Assembly (NCBI GenBank): GCA_038503065.1
Contig: JBCAMK010000018.1
Location: 1,364,001-1,428,000 of the forward strand
Length of the DNA: 64,000 bases
Direction: 5' to 3'
Origin: Paragyromitra xinjiangensis
Lineage: Eukaryota > Ascomycota > Pezizomycetes > Pezizales > Discinaceae
Below are positions 5,086 through 57,661 of this stretch, piece after piece. The position numbers and the translations under genes were made by a program. Under the pieces are notes generated by a model, which saw only the letters and a list, made by a program, of their open reading frames with translations, did not search any database and had not been told where the DNA came from. Numbering within the stretch: the first letter of the stretch is position 1; every line of letters begins with the position of its first letter.

Positions 5086-7159
5086 ATGCGTTACGCCTTG
5101 ACTGCGCTTGCCTTGCTCTCTGGAGTGAGTGCCCAAAACTACTCCACCGTTAACCTCGCAGACGTGGACATTGCCACAGCACCGAACAACACGCTGTTCA
5201 CGAGATGGAGACCAACCTCGCACATTATGGTATATTCTCTACCCTCACCCTCATACTCAATTCTAACTGGTACACAGGCGCCTCACTCATGGATGAACGA
5301 TCCCTGCGCCCCATCCTACGACCCCGCGACTGGTCTATACCACATTGTACCGCCCCTCTACTGAGAACCCCGTAAAAACTAGAACCTAACAACTACCTAC
5401 TTAGATGTACCAATTCAACCCACACCACATTAACTGGGGCAATATTTCTTGGGGTCACGCCGTGTCCAAAGACCAAGTAACCTGGACTGATGTCAACGGC
5501 TGGGAAGACAGTCTCGCCCGCACGCTCGGCACCGGTCCACCAGGCACCCTCGACCACCTCGGGGTCTTCTCAGGATCCGCCCAATTCCTCCCCTTGAACC
5601 AATCCTACGGACTCCCCGGCCTGCCTTTCACCAACGGGCCCACGAAAGAAACCGTCATGGTCGTCATGTACACCGCCGTGCAGCACCTTCCAACCCACTG
5701 GAGCATCCCCTACATCAACGGTACCGAAACACAATTCCTCGTCACATCAACCGACGGCGGCCACACCTTCAACAAATTCTCCGGTACAGACATCAACCCC
5801 GTCATCCCAGTCCCACCGCCAAACTGGAACATCACAGGCTTCCGCGACCCAATCTACAATAAATGGCCAGAAATGGACGACATCCTCTTCGGCAACCCCA
5901 CAGCAGGTAACTTCTACGCCATATTAGGCTCCGGAATCAAAGGCTCCGGCGGCCGTCTACCACTCTACTACGCCCCCGCGGACGACCTCACATCCTGGCA
6001 GTACCTCGGCCCCCTCTTCGCCGCCGCACCAAATAGTACCTGGAGCAACACATACTCCGGGTCCTTCGGATTCAACTTCGAGATGGCTGGAGCCTTCTCA
6101 CTCGCAGAGCTGAAAAACGACGGCGGCGACGACGTCTCCGTTCACAATTTCATAATCGCCGGTACCGAAGGCGGTAGCACAACGCAACACCCCTCGCTCC
6201 AATGGGCGCTTTGGTCCGAACTAGCCATAACCCGTGCCGGGGACGGGTTTGTAGAAAGTAGTATCCTCTCCTCTGGCGTCCTCGACTGGGGTTCCGCGTA
6301 CGCGTGGAACTCATTCTGGGATGCGCCGGGGAAGCGGCGGATTGCGTATGGGTGGTCGAGGGAGGACTTGATGGTTGCGCAGACGGCGATGGGGTGGCAG
6401 GGGGTAGTGACGCTACCTAGACATTTGTATGTTAAGGTGTATGAGGGGGTTGTGAATACCGAGGGTATTATATCGCAGAGAGGGTCTTGGACAGCTCAGA
6501 AGATGGTGGATGGGACGTGGAAGGTGACGACGTTGGGGATGCGGCCTGCCCAGGAGGTCGTCGATGCGTTGCGTCAAGGCGCGGGGAAGACTTCTTTGGG
6601 GAGGAGGACCGTAGGGGCGGGTACTTACACCCCGTTTGATGCGGGTGGCGTCTCGCTGAACATCCATGCTGAGATCGAGATACCATATAATTCTACAACG
6701 TCTCTCGGCTTCGCTGTGCGGCGGTCTCCAGACGGCGCAGAGCAGACACTCATAGTCTATAACCCCATCAAAAAAGAACTCTCCATCGTACGCAACAACT
6801 CCACTACGCTCCCGGTAGACTACGTTACCACTTACACACTCACCGCACCATTATTCCTTCTAGATCAACGCAGTAAGCGTGAAACACTAACACTAGATAT
6901 CTTTGTCGATAACTCTATGATCGAGGTATTTGCGAACGAGCGAGTCGCTATCACGGCGCGCGTGTATCCTGCCAGGAACGACTCAGTTGGTGTGGGAATG
7001 TGGACTGGGGAGGGGGAGGGAGAGGTTACGTTTAGACATGTGGGGGTGTGGGTGGGGTTGAAGAATGCTTTCCCGGGGAGGCCGGCGAATAGTAGTACGG
7101 GGTTGGTGTTTGATACGCCGGCGGAGTCGGGGGATGGGGTTTGGTGGGCGGGGAATTAG
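5086..7159 (+). CDS. Secreted GH32 enzyme, fungal beta-fructofuranosidase/fructosyltransferase clade
   Basis: Three exons (5086-5229, 5278-5346, 5405-7159) with two GT-AG introns of 48 and 58 bp, both phase 0, give a 655-residue protein. Residues 1-16 (MRYALTALALLSGVSA) are a signal peptide. All three GH32 active-site elements are present: the nucleophile Asp56 in WMNDPC, the transition-state stabiliser Asp219 in FRDP, and the acid/base Glu297 in GFNFEMAG. The NFE motif instead of the usual EC, the DPC instead of DPNG, and the HWSIPY segment resemble the fungal clade containing Aspergillus fructosyltransferases rather than yeast invertase. The second half is the usual C-terminal beta-sandwich, and its many N-x-S/T sites fit secretion. 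Expected activity is hydrolysis or transfructosylation of sucrose or fructans; the sequence does not tell which. No transporter or regulator is adjacent. Confidence 0.9.
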
Positions 7160-16820: not shown

Positions 16821-18842
16821 ATGGATGCCTACACCAATCCACTCCCTGAGACATACCGCCTATGGCGCTCCTTCATAATCCCTACTGAATATGGCGGGAT
16901 CCAAGGGATAGCGATGACTAAGAAGGAATATGGAATTGTGAACTCCATTTACACGTTCCTCATCGCTGGGATTTGCGGGTTCGTTTGGCAGGTGCTGGTC
17001 TTCTTTGCCCTCACATATTACCCAACGCAAGACGGATCTCTGCTTAAAGAAGGAGAAAAATATAAAGTTCCCGACACGGAGGAGGGCTTGCTCGAGATTC
17101 GCAAGCGTGAGGCTAATAGATATGTGGCTCTCGTCGCGATTTGGAACGCTCCCAATCCATGGGCTGCCATAGTACACCTCTTCAATCATGCTTTCAACAT
17201 GTGCTTCAAGGCTAAGGACGTACAATCGGGCTCCTACGATGTCATCTTCATGGTTCTTGCGCTTCTGGTGTTTGCGGGCACTAAGTCAGCAAGCGTAACG
17301 ATCCCAACATTTTATCTCCAAAGCGGTAGTGTCGCTCCAGTCAATCCTAAAGAGGTTTTCTACTCAACTATAGTTGAAAGCCCATATTTCCTGAGAATTC
17401 AGCAAACGAAAGCAGCATCTGCCCAAAGAGCCTTAGGAATTGTTGAGTTTGCGAAGGGAAAGCTCCTGGATAAGGTTAATATCTATTCAGGGGGACAGTG
17501 GGCTGGGCCTGAGGGTGGGATGATTGGCCGGACCCAATACAATTACAACGTAACAGGCTTAGACCTTGGTATACAGCACCATCATCCTACCAAATTTGTT
17601 TTAAAGGTTACCGGTGCTTGTACCCTTGACTATGGGTCATACAACACGAACCTTTCTACCAGCGCAATCGATCAATATACAGTACTCGGCAGTATTCCGG
17701 TAAAAGTTTCGGCAACACCACTCGGGAGGTCGCCAGGTGCGATAATAGTGTGTTCTACCGAACCCGTGGGGTCAAACTATTCATACGTCATTGTTCCTGA
17801 AACAGTTGGTCGTCCGAGCCCTTTTTCGGGAACCGATCCATGGTACACCACAGGTCCTAACTTAACTGCGAATTTGTTTACCGTGGATAATCAACGGCCA
17901 GTACTTTCTTGTTGGCAAAAAGACACATGGTCCTACGAGGAGCATATCGCCACAGATATCTCAAACCTGAAGAGTCTTCCCGGGTTAAATCTTTCCCCTG
18001 CCATTCAGGACCAATTCATCCCTGATCGTCTGACTACGCCTATGATATGCGAACTCGCCAACTCTCTCGGCAACTCAATCCTTATTTCTTCTGCTGGCAG
18101 GGGTCGACAATTTGATGCAGGTGTGGCCAATCACACTGCTGACCTTGAGCGTTTAATCCTCGCATCATACGTCGCAACACAAAACGTCCTGAGAGATAGT
18201 ACCATGATAACGGATACGTATAATCTCACCAACAGCGCTTTCGACGCTTCTGGCAACCCTCTACCTGGTTTTGACCAGTTTGTTCTCACGAGTGGTGATG
18301 TCGTTGCAGTTTCGCTCAAGACTTTGATCATCGTTCCGCTAGTCTTCCTCTTACTTTGGGTTGTTCGAAAAATCCTCGTATGCCTGAGATACAATAACAA
18401 GAGCAGCCCAAACATCTTTCGATTTACATTGCTTGCAGACGCCTTCCAGCCTGTGCAGCTGTATAGGCAGCTAGACGAACATGTGTGCGGTTATCGAGGC
18501 GACTGGCAGGAGCGAAGAGGAAATATGCCGTATATTACGACAGCTAAATCGTTCGAAACGTCCGACGACAAGCTGGCCCAGGCTTCAAACATAGAAACCG
18601 GAGATAGAGGGATGTCAGCGCCCAGAATTCCAGGAACGGGTGCTTCGGTTCCTATCTATGCCGCTCCGAGATCAATTATGCGCAATGATAAAAAATGCCA
18701 TCTCGAATTCGCGGGGCCTTCGGGAAAGGTAAAATCTGGGAGTAAGGCCGCTTCCGACGACCAAGTCGATAGGAAGCTAACCGGCGAGATCCATAATGAA
18801 CCAAGACGTGAGTCTTTGACCATCCTAAATCTATTGTTATAG
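16821..18842 (+). CDS. Large membrane protein with three predicted transmembrane segments, unknown function
   Basis: I chose the ATG at 16821 because of its strong start context (CCACCATGG), giving 673 residues in one exon. A start at 16749 would add 24 residues, and the frame is open back to 16605 without an ATG. Hydrophobic segments lie at about residues 39-67, 139-158 and 495-522. The roughly 335-residue stretch between the last two carries many N-x-S/T sites and several cysteines, so it is probably extracellular, and the C-terminal 150 residues are charged and probably cytoplasmic. There is no enzyme motif. This layout occurs in many uncharacterised proteins of filamentous fungi, but I cannot name a family. 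Confidence 0.75.
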   Translation: MDAYTNPLPETYRLWRSFIIPTEYGGIQGIAMTKKEYGIVNSIYTFLIAGICGFVWQVLVFFALTYYPTQDGSLLKEGEKYKVPDTEEGLLEIRKREANRYVALVAIWNAPNPWAAIVHLFNHAFNMCFKAKDVQSGSYDVIFMVLALLVFAGTKSASVTIPTFYLQSGSVAPVNPKEVFYSTIVESPYFLRIQQTKAASAQRALGIVEFAKGKLLDKVNIYSGGQWAGPEGGMIGRTQYNYNVTGLDLGIQHHHPTKFVLKVTGACTLDYGSYNTNLSTSAIDQYTVLGSIPVKVSATPLGRSPGAIIVCSTEPVGSNYSYVIVPETVGRPSPFSGTDPWYTTGPNLTANLFTVDNQRPVLSCWQKDTWSYEEHIATDISNLKSLPGLNLSPAIQDQFIPDRLTTPMICELANSLGNSILISSAGRGRQFDAGVANHTADLERLILASYVATQNVLRDSTMITDTYNLTNSAFDASGNPLPGFDQFVLTSGDVVAVSLKTLIIVPLVFLLLWVVRKILVCLRYNNKSSPNIFRFTLLADAFQPVQLYRQLDEHVCGYRGDWQERRGNMPYITTAKSFETSDDKLAQASNIETGDRGMSAPRIPGTGASVPIYAAPRSIMRNDKKCHLEFAGPSGKVKSGSKAASDDQVDRKLTGEIHNEPRRESLTILNLLL

Positions 18843-21075
18843 CTACTGACGCAGTGTTAGAGGCAGAGACAGAGAAACGTTAGTGGTTTTGCGGGGGTAC
18901 GGGGACCTAGTGCGATGCGTACCGGGAGTGGATTATACAAGGTTGACATGTATGATTGCTTGAGGGTTTCTGTATTTGTGCACCGTCTAGGATACCTTGG
19001 AGGAAGCGTTACTCACCTGTTTTTTTATGCGGTGTCCATTCATGTCTTTCGTTTGATCTTTAATTTTCTTTTACTCTTACTATTGCGGGGTGGGCGTCTT
19101 TGTTTTGTGGGACTGGGTATGAGGTGAAGGGTATGTGAGCTTATAACGACTTCCCTAAAAATACTAAGAAAAACTTTGTGATACCTGCTTTGTGTGGTGA
19201 ACGCCAACTAGAGTTAGTGCGGTGTAGGTCCTTGAGCACGAAAGCTTGAGATCCACATAGCTAACATAAACAAACTTAGTTCATAGCTTGTTCATGTTGG
19301 TTACCCAAAATTAGATGTTGTTCCTGTGATCCTTTCCCCGCTATATATTGGCCTCATCAGCGGGGCTTGTGGTTATATCCCTCTTGCCTATAATCCGTGT
19401 ACCTTCTGGCACTCTGCAAATATATTAAGGCTAAGAGTATTATCAACACTGCGCAGTGATAACGATGGCATGAACAGATATTTGGTAATCATGCACTCGT
19501 CCTTATCCGGGATGATTGTCCATTCTAGGTCCGGCCCCCGCCACCACTACTGTGGTAGACCTTTTCTCCCGGAAATCAAAATTACGGTGTAACAAGGACT
19601 ACAAATTGAATTTTGATGATGAATGAAGAAGCAATCATAGCAGTTTTGGCAATGATGAACCTGGTGTTGAACAGCTATATGCGTTTGACTGCGACTCGCC
19701 GGATTAACCTGGCTCAATATACTCGAAATGGTAACCAGTGGCCAGTTATTACGGACAGATACAACCTATTTGCAATGAGAGTAGCTTTCCAGCCGCCCCA
19801 TGCCCACCCTCGCGCGGCTAGCGCAGATGATAGGGGATGGGAAGGAGCCTACATGCAGTCCTTCACCTACATTTATGTTGTACCTATGTTGCATGGTCAC
19901 CGGTTAGGAGTGGGCCTCTCCTAAAATGGTCGGGCAGCGCGTTGAAGACAGCGAAAGGAACAATATTCGTGGGAAATCGTCGGTGACTAGGTTTGTTCGC
20001 TTATTCTGTTTCTTTTGTTCCGATCGTGTTAACTGTCAAGTTGGTTAATCCCGTCCCAAGTCTTTCATCACCCTCCTCGCTGTTCATGACCGTAGAAGCT
20101 TATTCTCGCTACAAGTACATGTAGTATCCACAGACGATCACATGGCAATTCTCGGACACCACTTTAGGAGCATGTATCGAGATTAGTGTTTACCCCTAGT
20201 CAACAGCACGCTCTGCTGGAGAAAAGACCTTACTATTATCAAACAATGAGACAAGAATCATCCACCGAGTCGTATAGGTAAGCAATGTGCATTTCGCGGC
20301 TACGGTGCGTAGCAAAATCCAGTAGTATGGGTTGGACACAAGGTTATTCGTGTCGCAACCTACCAACCATATTATTTCCCCCCACCCCGGCTTCGCTGTT
20401 TCCAGTAAATACCCTCTCATCTTTCCGCTCGCATCCCCAAATCTCCCACATCGTTGTCACCCACATTCTCTCCCTATTAACTCCGATCTAATTTCAGTCC
20501 ATTCTCTGATGCTAACCTACCCTTACGGTACCTACTGTGCTTTGGGCACATGATGCACGCAGACTTTCCTCCGACAGATGTGACCGCTCATGAGCTTATG
20601 AGAAGAATTATGTGCTTAGATGGACGCTCCCGGTACTCAAATTTATGACAGAGTACTGGTCGTATTGTCAAATTCATCGCTGGAGTTATTCTGGGGTCTG
20701 TTAGCCAATCAGGTTGGACGAAAAGGGGATGGATATACTAACAAAGAATAAGAGATATTATCCGGTGCCAGCCAGATTTGATTCAAACCAAACGGGAGGA
20801 AAGGGAAATGGAGAATGGGAGATTTTTAATAAGCGGTAGGAGAATAGGTGCTTGATGACTTTTAGGTGATGGAGTGTGGTCGCGGGGTGCTCCGTGGAGT
20901 CGCTGAGGTTGCCTGGCTAAAATGACGGCACGGCATGGTTTAATTGAACCAGAGTTAGAGTACACCCTCGGCCTGATGGTGCGCCTGGCTAGTTGGCGGA
21001 CCCAATACCTACGCGAATTTAGAGCCACTCCAATAAAGTTTATAAAGATAATTACGGAGATCAGAGTCAATGTTA
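18843..21075. other. Intergenic, no gene recognised
   Basis: Short frames such as 19613-19924 have no family features. Nothing RNA-like was seen. Confidence 0.45.
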
Positions 21076-27693: not shown

Positions 27694-30108
27694 CTAAAAA
27701 CTCAGCTCACTATAGTTTACACCCTCTCCCTTCCAGCTCCCAACAGCGAGGATCGCCGTCGCCTGCCATATCGCGTTCGCTGTCTTCCCCGCGAATCCCA
27801 CCGCAGTCTCCAAATCACCATCCGCAACAGCCTCCGTAATACCCGGAAATGTAGTCCCAACATAGCCCGTGTCAACACCAGGTGCATAGATCACTAATTG
27901 ACTGGTCAGCAGGCTCCAGAGAGCTAATAAAGGGGGAACATACTGTGCTTATAGAACTCTCTCCCCGGGAGACCACCTTGCGTGATGAACCCTCTTCCGA
28001 ACGTCTTCAGCCTCGTGTTGATTGCTTTCAGCTTGGGATCGTTCTCGGCGAGACCCGTTGCAAAGGGCATGAATTCGTTTGCGATTTTTACGAACCCTGC
28101 TACTGCATCATTCACTGGGCTAAGGTCGAGGTCGAGACTGGAGGCTTCAACAGCAGTGAGGAGCCTTTGGTAGTAGAGCGAAAGCTCTGAAGCGTAAGTC
28201 GCAACATTCAGCGGGAGGAGCGGGCGGTCGATAAGATTCATTGCGAGGACGCCAAGAAATTGGCCAGCTGCAACGTGTATAGCCCAGCCAGGGTCGCCAT
28301 ATGTAGTCATCCAGTGGTAAGAGTCGTAGTCGGAGTGGTAGTGGTACACCGGGTCGTTCGCTGATGCGCCGTAGCTCAAATCAACCTGTTGTACTGTTAA
28401 ATTCATCGGTCATAGAAGGATCTGATGGGGAACCTAAATCTGCCTGCGGGGATAGGCAATGGCGGAGACTTACAGCTGTGATACCGGCTTGAACAAAAGC
28501 GGTGAAATCGCTGTGGGCGCCCAACACTCCGATGGCAGAAGACTGTGCAGTCCAATTGTCGTATATTGTTCGAGGACTATTATTCGGCGCCGGGATCTTC
28601 TTCATCACCTCAATGAGAATATCATGTAGCTCTGGGTTCGCCTCAAGAGCGAATAGAGGTCCGGCAGCAGCGACATCGACGTTCAGATACGCGACAACAT
28701 TTGGACTCGCCCAGGTAATGTACTCTTCGAGCCACTCGGTCGAGCTAACCATACCATATTCCTCGGAATCCCAAGAAGCAAAGACACTAGCCATCGCATC
28801 AGTGTCATCTCGATAGAAATATCCGCAATAAAAAGAGCCTACATCGTTCTTCTCGGCTTCCAGCCTTGCGCCACAAGCTTCCCGAATGCTCTAACAAGCT
28901 CAACAAGCACCGCCGTCGCAGAATTCGGATCTGCCGCGCCGCCGACGATCCATGCATCGCGATGGTTCCCAATTATGATAACTTCGTCCGAGATCGTCCC
29001 GTTGATTATGCCAATAACATCCCAGATATCCGTAATATTTCCCTCCATAGCATTATTGATCGTGAGCACCACACCAGGTGCAGGTCCGGTCGAGTATGAA
29101 ATACCCGGTAAGCCTCCGGACCAATCACTGATATTCACATCAGCTGCAGATACACCATGGCCATTCAATGCCTCCAGAAGCGGCCTGGAGTCCCGGTAGG
29201 AAAGCGGTAACGACGGAATATGCGGATATATCTTGGCGAGGGACACCTGGCTTGGAAGGATATCCAGGCGTGGTCTAACACTGTTAACACGATTAGAAGG
29301 GCGGGGGGCTCAAGAACTAACCGGATCTCCAACATAGACACTGAAGTAAGACACTGAACCTCTTTGCACAGAGGACGGGTTGCGTGCTGGACCATCGGGG
29401 TAAGGAAGATGGCCATTCTCCACACGTATGTTTCCGTCATCCCCAGGGTCGCTGTAGATGATCGCGCCGATCATGCCAAAGTCTTGTGCGTTCTTGACTT
29501 TGAGACCGCGGAGCTGAGGGCCATACTGAACAATTGCAATCTTGCCCTCAAGCTGCACACCGAGCTCCACGAGACGCTGGAAATCGGTTTTGTGTCCCCG
29601 TCTGCCATGGAGTCAGCTAAAAGGTGCAAACGACATCTCAAATGGAATATGCTTACCCAACGAATATATATTCTGCTGTCGCATTCCCGGTGAATGAGTA
29701 TCCATGGAATGTGGTGACACGATTCGGATAACTTGTAGTCGGGTCTGCGGACAATATATCTTCCTGAACGGCGGCATGGAAGACCGACCCATTCGGATAA
29801 CTAAGGGACACCATCTGCGTGACTGGGTAGTCTAAAAACACGTTATACGGGATGATAGTCGTTGAGATACCGCTCTCAATCCATCTGTCGCGGGTCCACG
29901 CTGCTTGAGAGTAGTTTGTGCCCGCAAGGTGAAGGCCATGGGTATAGTAATATGACCACTCTGAGAGTCCAACAGTATCAAAGGATTTCATAATGAATGC
30001 CTCCTTCTCGGCGAGAGAAAGGTCGAGTGTCGGAACATCGCTGGCAAGAGACCAATCAACGAGAGAGCCGAAGACGACGAGAGAAGAAAGCTTAGAGATT
30101 GGTTTCAT
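27694..30108 (-). CDS. Secreted M28 peptidase, glutamate carboxypeptidase II family, one frameshift
   Basis: Six exons (30108-29657, 29601-29322, 29274-28843, 28786-28474, 28385-27944, 27893-27694) with five GT-AG introns of 47-88 bp. Signal peptide at residues 1-23. The protein has a PA domain (around VGRGHKTDFQRLVELGV and GKIAIVQYG), then the M28 zinc site: GNHRDAW, GGAADPNS, WDSEEYG, GAHSDFTAF and YHYHSDYDSYHW, and a helical dimerisation-type domain at the end. All zinc ligands and the catalytic Glu are present. The summed exons are 2119 bases, exactly one more than a whole number of codons. The surplus base lies in exon 3 near 29225-29237, between the parts reading TTPGYPSKPGVPRQ and IPSLPLSYRD. 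Without it the protein would be about 705 residues, normal for the family, so it is a recent single-base mutation or an assembly error. Likely substrates are acidic C-terminal residues of small peptides outside the cell or in the vacuole. Confidence 0.85.
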
Positions 30109-40998: not shown

Positions 40999-41151
40999 TC
41001 GCACAGTTTCATGCAACCCCGGGTGAATATCCCGCAACCGGGAGGGTGGCGGCACCTATAGCAAGGCTGAAGGTCCTTTGCACCAACCAGTAATTTCTAT
41101 TCCATTTGGTTGCAGGAGATCTCCCCGAGGGGATTGCTCGAAATTATACGT
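40999..41151. mobile_element. MITE, about 153 bp, degenerate copy, inverted relative to the next
   Basis: This is an inverted copy of the element at 41323-41476 over its whole length, with differences that are mostly C:T or G:A. TA precedes it at 40997-40998; the right end (AAATTATACG) has lost a clean TA. Confidence 0.75.
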
Positions 41152-41322
41152 TGTAGGGTTATAGAACACCTTGAAGAAGAGACCCGACTCTACTAACACT
41201 CGCGCTAGGTAGTTATCTATTCTTAATAGACTCACTCGCGATCGCACGTAACCCTTTACCTCAAAAACTGCTTCAACCACCCCTCCCTGAGGCTCATGGA
41301 TTGCCGAAAGGGACTTTTTGTA

Positions 41323-41476
41323 CCGTATAGTTTCGAGCATCCCCCGGGGGGATCCCGTGCAATTAAGAGGAATAGAAACTTCTGATTGGTGTAAAGGACC
41401 TTCGGTCTTGCTATAGATACCGCCACCCTCCCGGTTGCGGGGTATTCCCCCGGGGGGGTTACTCGAAACTATACGG
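41323..41476. mobile_element. MITE, 154 bp, TA target duplication
   Basis: The inverted ends start CCGTATAGTTTCGAG and continue into C-rich tracts (about 30 bp of similarity), with TA at 41321-41322 and 41477-41478. Together with the inverted copy at 40999 it forms a large palindrome of about 480 bp. Confidence 0.8.
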
Positions 41477-41478
41477 TA

Positions 41479-42185: not shown

Positions 42186-45100
42186 CTAGTGAGGGACAAC
42201 CTTGATTTCAACCTTCCCAGAAGCACCAATTATCTCCTTCACAAGAACCACGATCTTTCGCAAGTTAGAATCCTTGGATAGCTCGTACTGGGCGCCAGTG
42301 ACAGTGGCCTCGTAATTATCCACAGTGGTACCCGGAGCATACCAAAAGATAATCGTATAGCTGTCACCGAGCTCTTTGACGGGGTCATAGTCATTATCCC
42401 TAACTATCCTTTCGATGGTGATAGTGCGAGAAGAGTCGGCTGATGTCGCCTACAAAGAAAACACAAAATTAGTACCAAAAAGTGGCATAACGGGTCGGTG
42501 GTCTTGGGAACGCTACCTGACTAAGAGAAACGGCGCGATATTCGCCCTTCGCCTCCGGGTCGAGATATTTTTCCCTTGCTTCATCCTCAGAAATTGAGAA
42601 AAGCTCTTTTCCTTGTTTGGCAGGCTTCTGATGGTAAACCAGGTCATTGGGGGCGCTACTGCGGCTGACGCCATCATCAAGATATGTTATGTATTTCTAG
42701 AGTTCCAGAGAAGGTTAGCAAAGAGACTTTATAATATCCAGGCCAGGTTTGAGGTCAAACCCACGTTATCTCTTCCGGGGTAGATGTTGAATTTTATATG
42801 GTTTGGCCCACCGCTAATATCGCCCACCCATTGAGTGACTTTGACTTGCGGAATGATACCACCTACAGACCTATATCAGCGACCAGGAAATATTTCCAAA
42901 AATTGCAGCCAACCGGGGAATGTTTCATCTGCTTACCCTCTCTGACGTAAACAGGTGTCACATAGGCGAAATCAGCATAGTTGTTCGTGATCTTAGCAGT
43001 GTAGTTGATCACACTCCCCCCTTCGACAGCTGGCCCCAAAGCCACACCCTGATCGTCCCAAGGCCTTAAGTTGGAAGGATACCAAAAGTAACCTAACGGA
43101 AGATAGACATCCCTGTTTTCTCCAGGGTTTTCGCTTGAGCTTTGCATAATAGGCGCAACTAGAACGTCCCGGCGAACCATATATTGATTGTCCAGGAACT
43201 TTTGTGTCTCATTGAAAAACGATGTGTCCTGAGTATCTGTCAAGAGCTAATAATAATTAGATGGTACAATTAGCTTTTGAAAAGACTTGTGCGCTAATAG
43301 CGAGGCGGTGCGACCCCAAGCTGGCTTACGCCGCGGTTCAGCGGAAGTCATACCATAGATCTCACAATAGGCAAACCATCTATTATGTTCTCAAACATAG
43401 CATCATAGAGAAGCTGAATGAGAGAATATCTCATCTCGATCCAGTACCTGCAAATGTTCTCCACTGCCTCGTAGAGCCATGCTTGATCCGCGGGCACATT
43501 ACCGTCTTCGAGATGCTTCCTATATGCATATGGCTCCTATGAGAGTTCATACATGTTAATCTTTATCGCTAAGACAAATTTCCAAATTCAGTGGATTTTC
43601 ATACCTGGAACCACTTCCTATTCTTCCTAACATAGTGATTCCTGAGCCAAGGTAACAAAAACGAGCCAGCATACCACCGAATTATCAACTCGGGGCTACA
43701 GTATTTCTCATCCCCATTCGGCTCGAAGCCTCCTGCATCAGATCCAGCAATGCTGACACCATTGAGACCAACCGACAACACCTGGGAAACTGAAATCTTC
43801 CAGAAATTCCATGTACTTGCGTTGTCCCCAGTCCAAAGACCAGCATAACGATACATACCAGCAAAGCTTCCGCGTCCGAGGATAAAATTTCGTTTACCCT
43901 TACGAGATGGAAGGTCGTTGAGGCCTTTTGCGGTGGCTTTATGCAAGTTATAGGAATAAAGTGCCCAAATCTCAATCGCGAGTTTCTTTTCCGAAGGGCC
44001 TTGAGAATTACCATCAGAGTTGACAAGTAGGCGGGAAGGAAGCCTATGATTCATGATTATCAGCTAATTTCATTCTTGAGATTCGTTGTAAGAGATGTCA
44101 GCAAAAAGTACCCTTTCATATCTCCGTATGAGTCATGAATTGCGGGAGTTGTCATGTCTTGCCACACAAACTCAAGTCCCTGTTCGCAGAGATACGTATA
44201 CTGTTTTCCCCACCAGTCACGGACCTCACTTCTATTGAGATCCGGATAAAAGCCCGCCTAGTTTGTACCATATCAACCACCACTCATGAGTATAACCATA
44301 CGGTTAGAAAATTGCCACTTACAGTACCGTTTCCATATCCATAGCTTACCCCACCATGAAACGGATAGAGCTTGGAATTCCAATTTGCACCGAAATCACT
44401 ATAGATATGTGAGTGCCGCCTGGCCATAAATAAAATACCTTTCAGTCGGTATTAATAAAAGCCGGAACCTACTAGTGATCTCCAAAATCTGGTCTTCTGT
44501 CGACATTATTCGGATCGACCTCATACTTGTTTCCTCCACCATAGCAAACGTAGCGGACGTCATTTGACGAACCATTTGTTCCCTTGGTATATCTGTCGTC
44601 CATAATGAAGTATCTAGTCACAGATACTTCAATTAGAACCAATAAATATTCAGTCGCAGACCCAGCACATTGACACTCACTTGTTGTCATATCCTTCATT
44701 GAGAGTGGAATAGCCCCCCGGACGATCATTGACACTGATGACGGGAGTGATATTGGTAGAGCATTTAATACCATTTTCCCTTAACTCTGTGAACATCTCC
44801 TTAGGGCCAGGCCAAAACTTTTGTCCACTTTTCCCGAAGAACTTGGGGTCGATAGTAAAAGTCCTGAATCCGTCCTGAAAATAAAGTCAGCAAAATCAAT
44901 ACTTAGCCACGTAAAAGCCACGCATATCCCACCTGAAAGTCCACATCAACGTGAAGGCCATCTAGTGGGATCTTGCTTTCACGGTATTGCGTATAGACAG
45001 CATGAATTGCTTCATCGTCTTCGTACCCATAGCCTTTATAGGTTTTAGATCCAAGGTCAGCTGATGAACACAAAAAAAACTACATCGAAAAATAGCCAGG

Positions 45101-46661
45101 ACAAAGCTTGCAGGGCCTTACAAGCTTGATGGTTCCCCAGAATATATCTAGGTTTCAACTGCGGACGTCCCATAATGCTAGTATAAAGCCTAAATAAATA
45201 CTCACAGTTTAGCAACGCCCATAACATACAGAATGGTGATAGGTCTTTGAGATTTGGCCAATTGTCGAATGATATTCAGAATCGTACGAAATTTTAGAGC
45301 ATACCTCACGACTTCTGGAACTGTGTTTGCGCTGATCAAGTAACAATCCATTGAGCCGAACCTGGTACCCAGCTTGATGAAGCCCGAGTTAGATTTTCCG
45401 AAGTCGATAGAAATCTGCGAGAGATTGTCGAGAAAGGTGGCCGTGACATTCGCGTGCTCTGGATTGGAATTCACATCGAAGAAAAACGGGTCAGAGTGGT
45501 ACCTATTTTTAGAGGATCATTAGTAAACGGGGGGGTCCATTAAGCGCTGTTGTCATATTAAAGCTTCCTATAGAAAGGTTCAATACGGAAAACCATATGA
45601 CAATGGTTCTTCTAAAAATTCATACGGATAGCACGTACAGTGGCTCGCGAGCATCGAGTGGGCCCTGGTTGTAAACTTGTTGATACTGCATGTTATCAAA
45701 GTCTGCAGACTGTTAGTAAGGCAATATAACACAGAACCCAAATAACCCAAACTCACTAAAATAGTTCATGTAGCATGGCATTTTCATAAAGCTCGTGCCT
45801 CCTTGTTCTCCGAAACCCAAAAATTCCCCGTGGCCCGCTTTCACAACATCTAGAACCACGTCCTTCAGCATATTGTGGTCTGGGTGCACATGATGACGGA
45901 AAGTTTTCGGAGATGTCTGCCAGATGATTTTCTCCTTTGGTGAAGTGGCAGCCGCTCCATATTCTTTTGGCATGGGATAGAGTTCCTTCAAGGGCGTCAA
46001 GATACGTAAAGCCTATAAGGCTTGTGTCAGCGATTGAAATCCCCGGCAAAGGTCATAAGAATGTACCTGGATGCGGAAAGGTTGTTTGTATAAAATCAAC
46101 TTCATGGCATCACCTGTTTCATAAAAGTTTGGTCTCCCAGGCTTTGGCTCAGATTTAATCACTGTAGACTACAAAGGGTTAACATTAATCTCCTAATAAT
46201 AAAAGCATGATTTACCGAAAAGGTCCAGTAGGTCTTGTCATCAGACTCTTCCAGTTTAGTTGTCCAGGTAAGGCCTATATATCCATCCAATGCCTCGATA
46301 AGTTCGGTCATATAGTCCATCACGATAGTACGGCTATAGGTGTAAGAACAGACAAGGCAATCAGCACAGTTGATCCCTTCTCACAGAAAGAATCACGAAA
46401 AACTAACCCGTTTACATCTCCATATTGGCTTGCATCTGTGACGGTGGGGTCATATCGAACCCTCCATAAAGTAGGCCTAACATATTGGACGACACAAATT
46501 GTGCCGTCATCGAATGTAAGGTTAACTGCACGCCAGTAGTCTTTCTCCTTGACATCTTGTGGGGGAGTTTGGGAAACCGAAGCAACACCCGAAGGGCCAC
46601 CCCATGCCGTGGCTTCTCCGAAGTAATCTTCCGCCTTGCAGAAACTGAGCGGGTCATTCAT
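42186..46661 (-). CDS. Exo-alpha-1,4-glucan lyase (EC 4.2.2.13), GH31 family
   Basis: I could place 18 exons (first 46661-46408, last 42449-42186) and 17 GT-AG introns of 47-136 bp. The exons sum to 3192 bases, exactly 1064 codons, so a 1063-residue protein with no break. It starts MNDPLSFCKAED, without a signal peptide, so it is cytosolic. The GH31 nucleophile is Asp558 (VWQDMTTPAI) and the acid Asp675 (IAGSDAGGF), at nearly the positions known for red-algal glucan lyase. Whole blocks such as NSNPEHANVTATFLDN, LKPRYILGNHQACYGYE, GLHVDVDFQDGFRTF and PVYVREG follow the glucan-lyase pattern rather than alpha-glucosidases. The enzyme removes the non-reducing-end glucose of starch, glycogen or maltodextrin as 1,5-anhydro-D-fructose. 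No dehydratase or reductase for that product is next to it. Regulation: a TATA box and CT-rich leader lie upstream. Confidence 0.93.
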
Positions 46662-54719: not shown

Positions 54720-57661
54720 CAGTCGCTTAGGGGGGAACGGAAAATAGGTGGGAAGGGAAAGCAAGGGTTCGGGATATCTTAGTAATTGCATGTAGATCGA
54801 TTTCTTTGACATCAGGTTACTTGTAGCGCAACAGAAACGCCTCATGATGCCCGAAGTCCCCAACATCACAATCATGACAGCGAGGCTTATTTTAAGCAGG
54901 AATAAGGACAAATTAACGGGTTTTTAAAAGTGCGAGCCAGTATCTAAATACATAAACAAGAATACAACGATGCGATGATGCTGATAATGATGCTAATGAC
55001 GACTACAAGAAAGATGAGTTTTGCTTGGGAAAAAAGTACAAAAGCCACCTCAAAGGATGAAGAATGAAGAAAAAAAACCATCCGCTCTATCGCATACCAA
55101 CATGGATCCAACTTGGGATAACCCTACTACCCGTACTGCCCCAGGACATTCTTCTACTTTATTCCCTATTATTTCTACACCAAATCCCTCATTTACCCCC
55201 GAACCAAATATTATGGAACCAAATGGTGTTCGTCCACAGGTGGACCATAATAAGGAGTATTCCAAAGAAGAACGTCTTATTCTTGCTCTTGCAGATTACT
55301 TTGCCCAACTCTACTCCTACCAAAATTGTGCAGGTGATTCTATCGGCCCGATAGTAAGCCATATATCAAAACATTGGGGAGTCGCAAATAGCACTTTACG
55401 AGCACATATTTTACATCCTGAACGAAAATTACGGTCTGAACAGCACAGTGATATGCAAATTCTTACACGGGCAGAAGAGGATGCTTTGAAACAACGGCTG
55501 TTTTTTCTTGATGATTTTAATATTCCCGCAGATCGAGCCCTCTTTTACACATTAGCCAACGCTATCCTACATCAACGAGAACCATTTCGTACGCTAGAAC
55601 TGGGTCTATCAATATATTGACCGCCATCAAGACTGTGAAAATGTATTGGTACGAACAATTTCTACAAGCCGTGCCAATGCTGAAAATTGGAATGTGATGG
55701 AGGACTTTTTTTGGCAGGTAATAAAAATATTAACCAACTTGGGAATTGAACCCAACACGTTCAGCTTCTATACCTTCCTGCTTCAACTTATACTACTAAA
55801 GCTAATTACAAATATAGTTAAAACTCGTCACTGAAAAGTACGATATTCTTCCAGTCAACACCTATAACCTTGATGAAAAGGGTTATATTTTGGGAGTGGG
55901 AATGGAAACAAAACGAATTTGCCGATCCATTCAGCATGGTGCTTCACGATATAAGGAAGCCAGAAACCGAGAATCTTGTACTGTGGTGGAAACTATTGCA
56001 CCCGATGGTTTTGTCCTAACTCCATTGATTATTTTCAAAGGGAAAAACCATCTTGCAGGATGGCATAAGGAGGAAAAAGAGGAGGATTACTGGTATGGGT
56101 ATGCCGATAAAGGTTACAATAATAGTCTGCTCTGTTTAGAGTATATAGAGAAGATATTTGAGCCAGAAACAGCATTGCGGTAAGTTTATCTTAATATATT
56201 GTTTATTTTAATATATTCTAATAATTAGTATAGTGCAGGGTCCTGTTGGAGATTGCTTATCTTTGATGGCTTTGAGTCTCACATTGATTACCGTCTCGTT
56301 GATTTCTGTTTGCTCAACAAAATCCTTCCATTTTGCCTTCCGGCCCACACTTCACATGTTCTACAACCCTTGGACGTTGGAGTTTTTTCGGCACTCAAAT
56401 CCTACTACTGCCAAGAAGTAAATAGTATCCATATCCCTATTGACAAAAGCATGTTCTCCAACATTCTAGTTCATGCTCGGAGAAAGGCTTTCACAGAAAA
56501 AAACATTAAATCAGGGTTTCGAGCAACTGGTATATATCCATATAACCCCAACAGAATCCTAAATACACTTACTTTACGTGAACCCACACTAAATCAACCA
56601 CACCCTTTACCACCTCTTCCTCCTGGTCTCCAAACCCCTCACAAGCAATTTACCTTCACTCCTCGTACACCAGTTACTCCTCGCTCTATACATAACTTGT
56701 ATGTAGAAGGGTTATCAACAATTACGTCTAGCAGCCCCCGATCACAAAAACAACGTACAATTTTTACAAAATTCAAGAGTAAGCGAAAAAGTGCATTCTT
56801 TGTGAAGATGCGTAAGATGGTGAGGAAGCATTTGAGGCAGGAAGTACTACAACTTCTTAAAGGAAAAGTTGACAAAAGATATGTCAATTACGAGGTTGCG
56901 TGTGTTCTTGAGAGGGAATAAACTGGTGGAGGCGAAAAGAAAACGGGATATAGAAAAAGAGGAGAAAAATAAGAAGCAGCGTATAGCCAGAGAGATGAAG
57001 AAATCTGCACATTCGGGAGAGCATTTGGGTTAGAGCTCGGTGGTCAGGTTTTATTTGTTTTACTTTTTTATCCTGTTTCTTTCTTTAGTTTATTTATGTT
57101 TTATCTCTACGTTTTACTCTTTGTTCTCTTTTTAGTTTGCTGATTTCTTTCATCTGACTTGTTCAATTAAAAAAAACTTGTTAATATACTGTCGCGATAT
57201 ATCTGACTGGTCACACGGGGGTAGAAATTCATCTACAACAAAACCGGTGCTCATTCCTTAGCCTCAAATTTATCTTGTATATTGCTAAGTGCCCAAGTCT
57301 ATGTAAATAGAGGGGTCGATCAAGAGTGGCATTACACTCATGCCGAGTCAATGGACTGGCATGCGGACAACCATATTCCCTAGCTCCACCTAAAAGGCGG
57401 CCAGGGCTCTCAATTCTATGTGCAATGACAGCTTCCGAGTTTCACGGAAAAACTGGTACACCTAGGATTTGAACTTAAGTTCTTATACCCCTAGGAGCTC
57501 ACACATAGGTCTCGCTGATACAACTAAGCTAAGATTTTTGTTGTAAGTTTGGGAGACATCGGTTAGAAAATCTCCACAGAGCCGCAATGCAGATATTCGC
57601 CTCCCAGACCGAACCCTTGCTTTCCCTTCCCACCTATTTTCCGTTCCCCCCTAAGCGACTG
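54720..57661 (+). mobile_element. pogo/Fot1-type DNA transposon, 2942 bp, complete ends
   Basis: The terminal inverted repeats are 53 bp and identical (starting CAGTCGCTTAGGGGGGAACG), flanked by TA at 54718-54719 and 57662-57663. The element holds one transposase gene with the DDE_1 domain, listed separately. Perfect ends mean a recent insertion, even though the transposase is broken. Confidence 0.95.
55057..57033 (+). pseudogene. Transposase, pogo/Fot1 family (DDE_1), frameshifted
   Basis: From ATG 55057 an N-terminal helix-turn-helix DNA-binding part reads to about 55600 (VSHISKHWGVANSTLRAHIL). There the frame is lost by an indel, and coding resumes in another frame with YQYIDRHQD. A 100-bp intron (55718-55817) and a 54-bp intron (56180-56233) fit. 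The catalytic triad is present: Asp in TYNLDEKGY, Asp in LLIFDGFESH and Asp in HVLQPLDVGVF. The main frame stops at 56921, but a basic tail (KRKRDIEKEEKNKKQR) continues in another frame to 57033, so a second shift is likely. The element cannot move itself as read, but its ends could be used by an active relative. Confidence 0.85.

What the first reader, a model, noticed from the sequence alone, without database searches (positions are those of the whole stretch)
42186..46661. Intact 18-exon alpha-1,4-glucan lyase in a filamentous fungus
The exon sum is exactly 1064 codons, both GH31 carboxylates are in place, and block-level similarity is to glucan lyases rather than alpha-glucosidases. These enzymes make 1,5-anhydro-D-fructose and are known from red algae and a few fungi such as Morchella and Peziza. 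The missing signal peptide implies intracellular glycogen or maltodextrin use. The isolated position raises the question of where the product-processing enzymes lie and whether the gene was acquired.
Basis: partly seen in the sequence, partly recalled or inferred. Interest (0 to 1): 0.75.

Follow-up and report, generated by a model that had tools for sequence, protein, structure and literature searches.

The report
Intact fungal alpha-1,4-glucan lyase gene
The gene is an intact fungal enzyme gene that most likely breaks glycogen by elimination instead of with water; it is one of four such genes in this fungus, and related genes in many bacteria sit next to what looks like the gene for the next enzyme of the same pathway.

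Summary
In detail: 18 exons, 17 GT-AG introns, 1064 codons with the stop, minus strand 46661-42186. The protein groups with the Morchella vulgaris lyase entry, away from hydrolase-type GH31, and carries both positions that mark GH31 lyases: Asn428 (published Asn459) and Thr561 where hydrolases have Glu. It is not a lone or recent arrival: three lyase-type paralogues lie on other contigs and group with Pezizales proteins. The less expected result lies outside the window: of 79 bacterial relatives fetched, 28 of 42 with WQ/LDMTTP, mostly cyanobacterial, have a dehydratase propeller and/or cupin gene beside the lyase gene, against 0 of 29 with Cys or Asp there and 0 of 6 hydrolase-type. The window gene is a new member of a known family; a bacterial anhydrofructose operon with a split dehydratase was in none of the papers I could search. 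No activity was tested.

The parts
42186..46661 (-). GH31 alpha-1,4-glucan lyase gene, 18 exons, 1063 aa
   Evidence: spliced alignment to P0001; same exon set but the last intron from P0002 and P0005
46408..46661 (-). exon 1 (start ATG 46661-46659)
46216..46333 (-). exon 2
46067..46168 (-). exon 3
45757..46012 (-). exon 4
45639..45702 (-). exon 5
45305..45502 (-). exon 6
45122..45189 (-). exon 7
44933..45033 (-). exon 8
44681..44874 (-). exon 9, holds Asn428 (TNITP; codon 44754-44752), equivalent of lyase Asn459
44473..44613 (-). exon 10
44323..44398 (-). exon 11
44112..44257 (-). exon 12, holds WQDMTTP: nucleophile Asp558 (44158-44156) and Thr561 (44149-44147) in place of the hydrolase Glu
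43605..44043 (-). exon 13, holds WTGDN: acid Asp646 (43826-43824)
43354..43536 (-). exon 14
42937..43246 (-). exon 15
42765..42862 (-). exon 16
42517..42696 (-). exon 17
   Evidence: one search had ended it at 42522
42186..42449 (-). exon 18 with stop codon
   Evidence: one search had begun it at 42439

Best explanation
The gene encodes an intracellular exo-acting alpha-1,4-glucan lyase (EC 4.2.2.13). Asp646 protonates the leaving group and Asp558 forms a glucosyl-enzyme ester; with Thr561 in place of the hydrolase Glu, and Asn428 assisting, Asp558 then takes the C2 proton, so the ester collapses by elimination and releases 1,5-anhydro-D-fructose from the non-reducing end of glycogen or maltodextrin. 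The fungus converts this sugar with one or both of its two fused propeller-cupin dehydratases (contigs 22 and 17) towards ascopyrone M and microthecin-type products. Shown here: gene model, family, active-site residues, paralogues, dehydratase genes. Inferred: activity, substrate, location, flux and end product.
For: Gene model. All 120 listed hits are lyase-type at the position after the nucleophile, among them the M. vulgaris entry at 62%. Tree with lyases, away from hydrolase-type rows. Asn428, Asp558, Thr561, Asp646 aligned to the published lyase; the spacings Asn-Asp 94 and Asp-acid 112 in 2x2h equal 553-459 and 665-553 (553 and 459 from PMC12441222; 665 recalled). AlphaFold2 model of the 82% identical P0001 has the Gracilariopsis lyase 2x2h as top Foldseek match, E 1.7e-48. 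Two dehydratase genes in the genome. Neighbourhood of bacterial relatives: 28 of 42 WQ/LDMTTP loci next to dehydratase genes.
Against: No activity or expression data for this gene. In the red-algal enzyme the position after the nucleophile is Val, here Thr; that Thr permits elimination rests on the fungal entries. In the PDB sequence search the top hit was maltase-glucoamylase (E 2.7e-40), just ahead of the lyase (5.3e-38) (draft protein). NCBIfam's best model is alpha-glucosidase MalA, far under its cut-off (219 against 800 bits). Foldseek TM-scores to 2x2h (0.68/0.70) are not clearly better than those to hydrolases (for example 0.65/0.79); only the E-value leads. In the listings seen, lyases of the window's own clade do not share a contig length with a dehydratase. 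14 of 42 bacterial WQ/LDMTTP loci have no dehydratase gene in the held flank, some with full flanks.
Confidence: 0.88

Rival explanations
1. It is an alpha-glucosidase with unusual active-site letters that mainly hydrolyses.
For: GH31 fold and both carboxylates are shared with hydrolases; UniRef names the M. vulgaris entry alpha-glucosidase.
Against: The Glu three residues after the nucleophile, present in 7 of 7 hydrolase-type rows (own contig 4, L101-L106), is Thr; Asn is present where 6 of 7 have Ile and 1 has Met. Tree position.
Confidence: 0.06
2. It is a lyase-clade protein that has shifted to another substrate or lost activity; a different paralogue (contig 20, 6 or 19) carries the anhydrofructose flux.
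For: Four lyase-type genes in one genome; the clade of the contig 19 copy holds the three fungal lyases placed in the tree that share a contig length with a dehydratase.
Against: The window protein is the own copy closest to the M. vulgaris lyase entry and keeps all four tested residues; its 82% relative P0001 reads unbroken on a contig of at most 3,565 bases, as a spliced transcript would.
Confidence: 0.06

Closest known systems
Morchella vulgaris alpha-1,4-glucan lyase (Q9UVZ1, P0004)
   Same: 62% identity over the whole query, WQDMTTP and WTGDN, similar length (1070 aa); same 13-row clade
   Different: only sequence distance seen; that this entry's enzyme was assayed as a lyase is recalled, not read here
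Gracilariopsis lemaneiformis alpha-1,4-glucan lyase (PDB 2x2h)
   Same: Asn, nucleophile and acid aligned; no Glu after the nucleophile; top Foldseek match of the P0001 model by E-value
   Different: Val instead of Thr at that position; long branch, place unresolved in the tree
Anhydrofructose pathway of Pezizales (Anthracobia melaloma lyase, dehydratase, tautomerase)
   Same: lyase and dehydratase genes both in this genome; this published pathway I know from a reference title seen and from recall
   Different: tautomerase and reductase genes not sought; genes unlinked here
Phanerochaete aldos-2-ulose dehydratase (PDB 4a7k)
   Same: an ORF of the contig 22 gene matches it, E 3.6e-20; both own loci match the AUDH cupin family
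   Different: the gene on contig 17 stands near a pyranose 2-oxidase gene, so that copy may serve glucosone instead

Membership tests
GH31 alpha-1,4-glucan lyase (EC 4.2.2.13) | GH31 catalytic domain | tested here: met
   PF01055 on the window exon, E 7.5e-28; P0001 E 2.5e-65
GH31 alpha-1,4-glucan lyase (EC 4.2.2.13) | nucleophile and acid aspartates | tested here: met
   Asp558, Asp646
GH31 alpha-1,4-glucan lyase (EC 4.2.2.13) | Asn (lyase N459) where glycosidases have Ile | tested here: met
   Asn428; of 7 hydrolase-type rows 6 Ile, 1 Met; rule read in PMC12441222 section 3.1
GH31 alpha-1,4-glucan lyase (EC 4.2.2.13) | no Glu three residues after the nucleophile | tested here: met
   Thr561; Glu in 7 of 7 hydrolase-type rows; the Glu-to-Val effect in an archaeal glucosidase is recalled
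GH31 alpha-1,4-glucan lyase (EC 4.2.2.13) | groups with lyases, not glucosidases | tested here: met
   67-row tree, SH-aLRT 100; quick method, no bootstrap
GH31 alpha-1,4-glucan lyase (EC 4.2.2.13) | releases 1,5-anhydro-D-fructose from alpha-1,4-glucan | not testable with these tools
   needs an assay
GH31 alpha-glucosidase | W-x-D-M-N-E motif | tested here: not met
   WQDMTTP; own genes on contigs 3, 4 and 5 read W-I/N-DMNEP
Anhydrofructose pathway | anhydrofructose / aldos-2-ulose dehydratase gene in the genome | tested here: met
   two loci, contigs 22 and 17
Anhydrofructose pathway | ascopyrone tautomerase, anhydrofructose reductase | not tested
   not searched for

The most novel reading that the evidence does not exclude
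The anhydrofructose pathway is not a fungal and red-algal speciality but a widespread bacterial one, carried as an operon of glucan lyase plus a dehydratase split into propeller and cupin genes, above all in filamentous cyanobacteria; fungi, this one included, received both genes from such a source, fused the dehydratase and, in Pezizales, multiplied and scattered the lyases.
Probability: 0.4. Interest if true: 0.8.

Novelty: new member of a known kind. Interest (0 to 1): 0.5.

Why it matters
The gene gives one more well-supported fungal glucan lyase, with its three paralogues and the two candidate dehydratases of the same genome, so the route from glycogen to anhydrofructose-derived products can be tested in one organism. 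Following it up shows that bacterial relatives with the same active-site letters often sit beside dehydratase genes. If those bacterial operons work, an elimination route of glycogen or starch breakdown exists in cyanobacteria. A 2025 review section that I read gives fungi and red algae as its examples of organisms with the lyase, and bacteria as consumers of the product (PMC12441222, section 3.1, passages); the held 300,000 of 445,374 characters of a 2024 review of prokaryotic alpha-glucan enzymes gave no match for lyase or GH31 (PMC11046441).

Tried and rejected
Ab initio splice model: 1050 aa with wrong exon choices; used as the query, then replaced. model (1058 aa) rejected for its weak last intron. 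Chance or pseudogene: rejected, frame intact. Contamination or a lone foreign gene: judged unlikely, because four lyase-type genes lie on four contigs and group with Pezizales proteins. A gene cluster around the window gene: 20 of the 29 other ORFs of 100 aa or more printed were scanned with Pfam; 5 of the 20 pass a cut-off (GH32 invertase type, TFR dimer, peptidase M28, two DDE_1 pieces) and none looks like a pathway gene; the dehydratase family has no match on contig 18. Fungi nested inside bacteria as proof of transfer: not claimed, since a tree with the 17 bacterial rows as one clade is not rejected (p-AU 0.314). Pyranose oxidase ORFs beside bacterial lyases: none found with two own-genome ORFs as queries against 1388 flank ORFs. 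Placing the red-algal enzyme: unresolved, long branch. Papers not held.

Full report
WHAT IS THERE. The window is bases 1364001-1428000 of contig 18 in a 48.2-Mb, 22-contig genome. A splice-aware alignment that I wrote, with P0001 as template, finds 18 exons on the minus strand from ATG 46661 to a stop ending at 42186; the exons sum to 3192 bases, 1064 codons with the stop, 1063 residues. P0001, P0002 and P0005 had given the same exons save for the last intron, which a too strict donor threshold misplaced.

WHAT FAMILY. The best relatives are 82% (unnamed, P0001), then 60-63% for Choiromyces, Tuber, Morchella and Kalaharituber; the M. vulgaris entry is 62% (the listing shows 120 of 304 proteins). 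In a 67-row tree (quick IQ-TREE, SH-aLRT only) the window protein sits in a 13-row clade with that entry (100) and in a 32-row fungal clade (100); seven hydrolase-type rows (own contigs 4 and 5, L101, L103-L106), which I named as outgroup, are separated by a branch of 0.98 with support 100. Caveat: the Gracilariopsis row and the two own hydrolases have very long branches.

ACTIVE SITE. After the nucleophile the window protein reads WQDMTTP; hydrolases read W-x-DMNE. Among 120 listed hits the third residue after Asp is Thr in 83, Ser in 32, Gly in 5 and never Glu; in 7 of 7 hydrolase-type rows (own contig 4, L101-L106) it is Glu. A review section that I read states that in GH31 lyases Asn459 assists Asp553 and that glycosidases have Ile there (PMC12441222). 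Asn is present in the window protein (Asn428), in the other three own lyase-type proteins, in 2x2h and in 117 of 120 hits (3 gaps); 6 of the 7 hydrolase-type rows have Ile, own contig 4 has Met. Among bacteria, Asn is in 41 of 42 WQ/LDMTTP rows and in 27 of 29 rows with Cys or Asp at the Glu position, so Asn does not tell those two groups apart. The chain spacings in 2x2h, 94 and 112, match 553-459 and 665-553 (665 recalled). This test rests on mechanism, not on the tree, and it is met.

STRUCTURE. The AlphaFold2 model of P0001 (mean pLDDT 77.5; under 50 at 560-565 and 647-668, next to the active site) has 2x2h as best Foldseek match by E-value, 1.7e-48, ahead of the next at 1.5e-45, a GH31 dextranase. 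TM-scores do not separate lyase from hydrolases, so I give this little weight.

PARALOGUES. The GH31 family search rings at nine gene places in this genome. Four are lyase-type: the window gene, C20:776813-781264, C6:416346-421024 and C19:35077-39563 (the last three with 18, 20 and 19 exons; the C6 model contains one doubtful 3-base exon). Three read W-I/N-DMNEP (contigs 3, 4, 5) and two read KTDFGE or TDFGE at that place, another GH31 type (contigs 5, 21). C20 groups with Morchella sextelata 3104 (100), C6 with M. sextelata 2393 and M. snyderi (100), C19 with Tuber brumale (91), Terfezia and Kalaharituber. So the gene family is old in this order. The phosphorylase family search found one glycogen phosphorylase place, on contig 1.

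PRODUCT-PROCESSING ENZYMES. A whole-genome search for the AUDH cupin family finds two loci, C22:10959-11877 and C17:14132-15102, and none elsewhere. A 315-aa ORF of the first matches aldos-2-ulose dehydratase 4a7k, E 3.6e-20. Approximate spliced models (705 and 712 positions with the stop) group with Morchella snyderi (support 82) and with Peziza echinospora (97). Contig 22 begins with telomere repeats, so its copy is subtelomeric, as is the contig 19 lyase; the first bases of contig 17 are not telomere repeats. About 2 kb after the contig 17 copy begins a pyranose 2-oxidase gene (225-aa ORF, 4mif E 5.1e-37), so this copy may act on glucosone; which copy takes anhydrofructose is open.

FUNGAL LINKAGE. 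In two of these, Monosporascus and Cercophora, the locus tags are consecutive. I read the match of lengths off the tables; the contigs were not seen. Of the 11, three were in the tree (P0020, P0027, P0062) and all lie outside the window's clade, with the contig 19 copy; the other eight were not placed. Of the nine rows of the window's clade with a named contig none has such a match. In these listings the window gene belongs to the stand-alone kind.

BACTERIA. A scan of genome contigs found 240 stretches that encode relatives; the best 80, 79 distinct loci, were kept. The two search patterns include the WQDM and WTGD motifs, so the set is biased towards them. Of the 79, 42 read WQ/LDMTTP, 29 have Cys or Asp at that place, 6 are WNDMNEP and 2 are fragments without the motif. 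By tblastn at E <= 1e-6, 28 of the 42 have a dehydratase propeller and/or cupin gene in the held flank (13 both, 14 cupin alone, 1 propeller alone), against 0 of 29 and 0 of 6. Of the 28, 23 are cyanobacteria; the others are a Paenibacillus, a Vibrio and MAGs of Melainabacteria, Bacteroidota and Acidobacteriota. Two of the propeller hits (L033, L053) are short pieces and one (L040) is cut by the end of the held stretch. Of the 14 misses some are cut by contig ends (L047, L055, L061), others such as L039, L054, L056, L068 and L091 have full flanks and still lack the genes. The propeller of L050 hits PF22301 at E 4e-53 and 4a7k at 1.4e-75. Of seven cupin proteins scanned with Pfam, three hit AUDH_Cupin at E 2.3e-4 to 1.2e-3, all under its cut-off, and four have no such hit; a profile comparison of 14 of them with 15 fungal and rotifer dehydratases aligns them to the C-terminal cupin, probability 96.9%, E 1.7e-10. 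The loci are related by descent, so the counts are not independent trials. Even so, the repeated neighbourhood supports that the WQDMTTP clade makes anhydrofructose.

DIRECTION OF TRANSFER. The best trees place the fungal clade inside the bacteria, but a tree with the 17 bacterial rows as one clade is only 9.98 log units worse and not rejected (p-AU 0.314). Bacterial origin is likely from the breadth of phyla, not shown. In the dehydratase tree bacteria were set as outgroup, so it says nothing on direction.

WHAT IS IN PRINT. Library searches for glucan lyase with anhydrofructose, with fung (15), with cyanobacteri (23), with GH31 subfamily terms (36), anhydrofructose with dehydratase (28), aldos-2-ulose dehydratase (35), anhydro-D-fructose with bacteri and operon (58), and four pathway terms (74) showed no paper on a bacterial glucan lyase operon in the listings and passages that I saw. 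Bacterial use of the product is in print: Sinorhizobium reduces it (PMC12441222, passage) and a marine Opitutae-related single-cell genome is said to hold enzymes for degrading it (PMC6003095, passage). The library lacks most subscription papers, among them the GH31 subfamily paper, so this is weak evidence of novelty. In PMC8185036 (passage) three Morchella importuna proteins named alpha-1,4-glucan lyase appear in secretome data, two marked Y and one N in a column whose header I did not see; this could count against a purely intracellular role in relatives.

VERDICT. Its genome makes the pathway testable, and the bacterial context is the most interesting by-product.

Noticed in passing
G000 contig ends, e.g. 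L023:1-200 (C22), L025:1-200 (C19): Telomeres look like (TTTAGGG)n, the plant-type heptamer: 420 exact overlapping 4-unit matches in the genome; the listed ones on contigs 3, 6 and 7 lie at contig ends (ends of contigs 1 and 2 not checked), and (TTAGGG)4 has no match.
   Followed up: partly
contig 17: 12005-15129 (L018:2506-5630 +) and about 17040-19714 + (L018 from 7541, into L107): Fused aldos-2-ulose dehydratase gene followed by a pyranose 2-oxidase gene: a likely cortalcerone/microthecin-type pair in an ascomycete.
   Followed up: partly
L064-L100, e.g. L070:4016-5950, L096:4389-5993: A second bacterial GH31 group with Cys or Asp in place of Thr (WQDMTCP/WQDMTDP) has its own conserved neighbours: a 529-649 aa ORF upstream (21 of 79 loci; three of them scanned, no Pfam match over its cut-off, two without NCBIfam match, one without convincing PDB match) and a further ORF, mostly just downstream (20 of 79 loci; two scanned, both DUF6209).
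   Followed up: partly
listing, P0170-P0172 and others: Bdelloid rotifers (Rotaria, Adineta) carry many fused aldos-2-ulose dehydratase proteins.
   Followed up: no
window 41017-41150 and 41321-41478: Two inverted copies of a roughly 160-base element with about 50-base terminal inverted repeats; at least 39 further places in the genome match it over more than 100 bases at 75-82% identity. MITE-like, 0.7 kb beyond the gene's stop.
   Followed up: partly
window 5405-7156 +; 27927-28890 -; 55818-56918 +: GH32 invertase-type gene; TFR-dimer and M28 peptidase exons; DDE_1 transposase pieces.
   Followed up: no
P0001, P0007-P0009, P0019, P0043: Unbroken full-length lyase frames on contigs of 3.4-3.7 kb from metagenome sources look like spliced transcripts, so relatives are probably expressed in nature (inference).
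   Followed up: no
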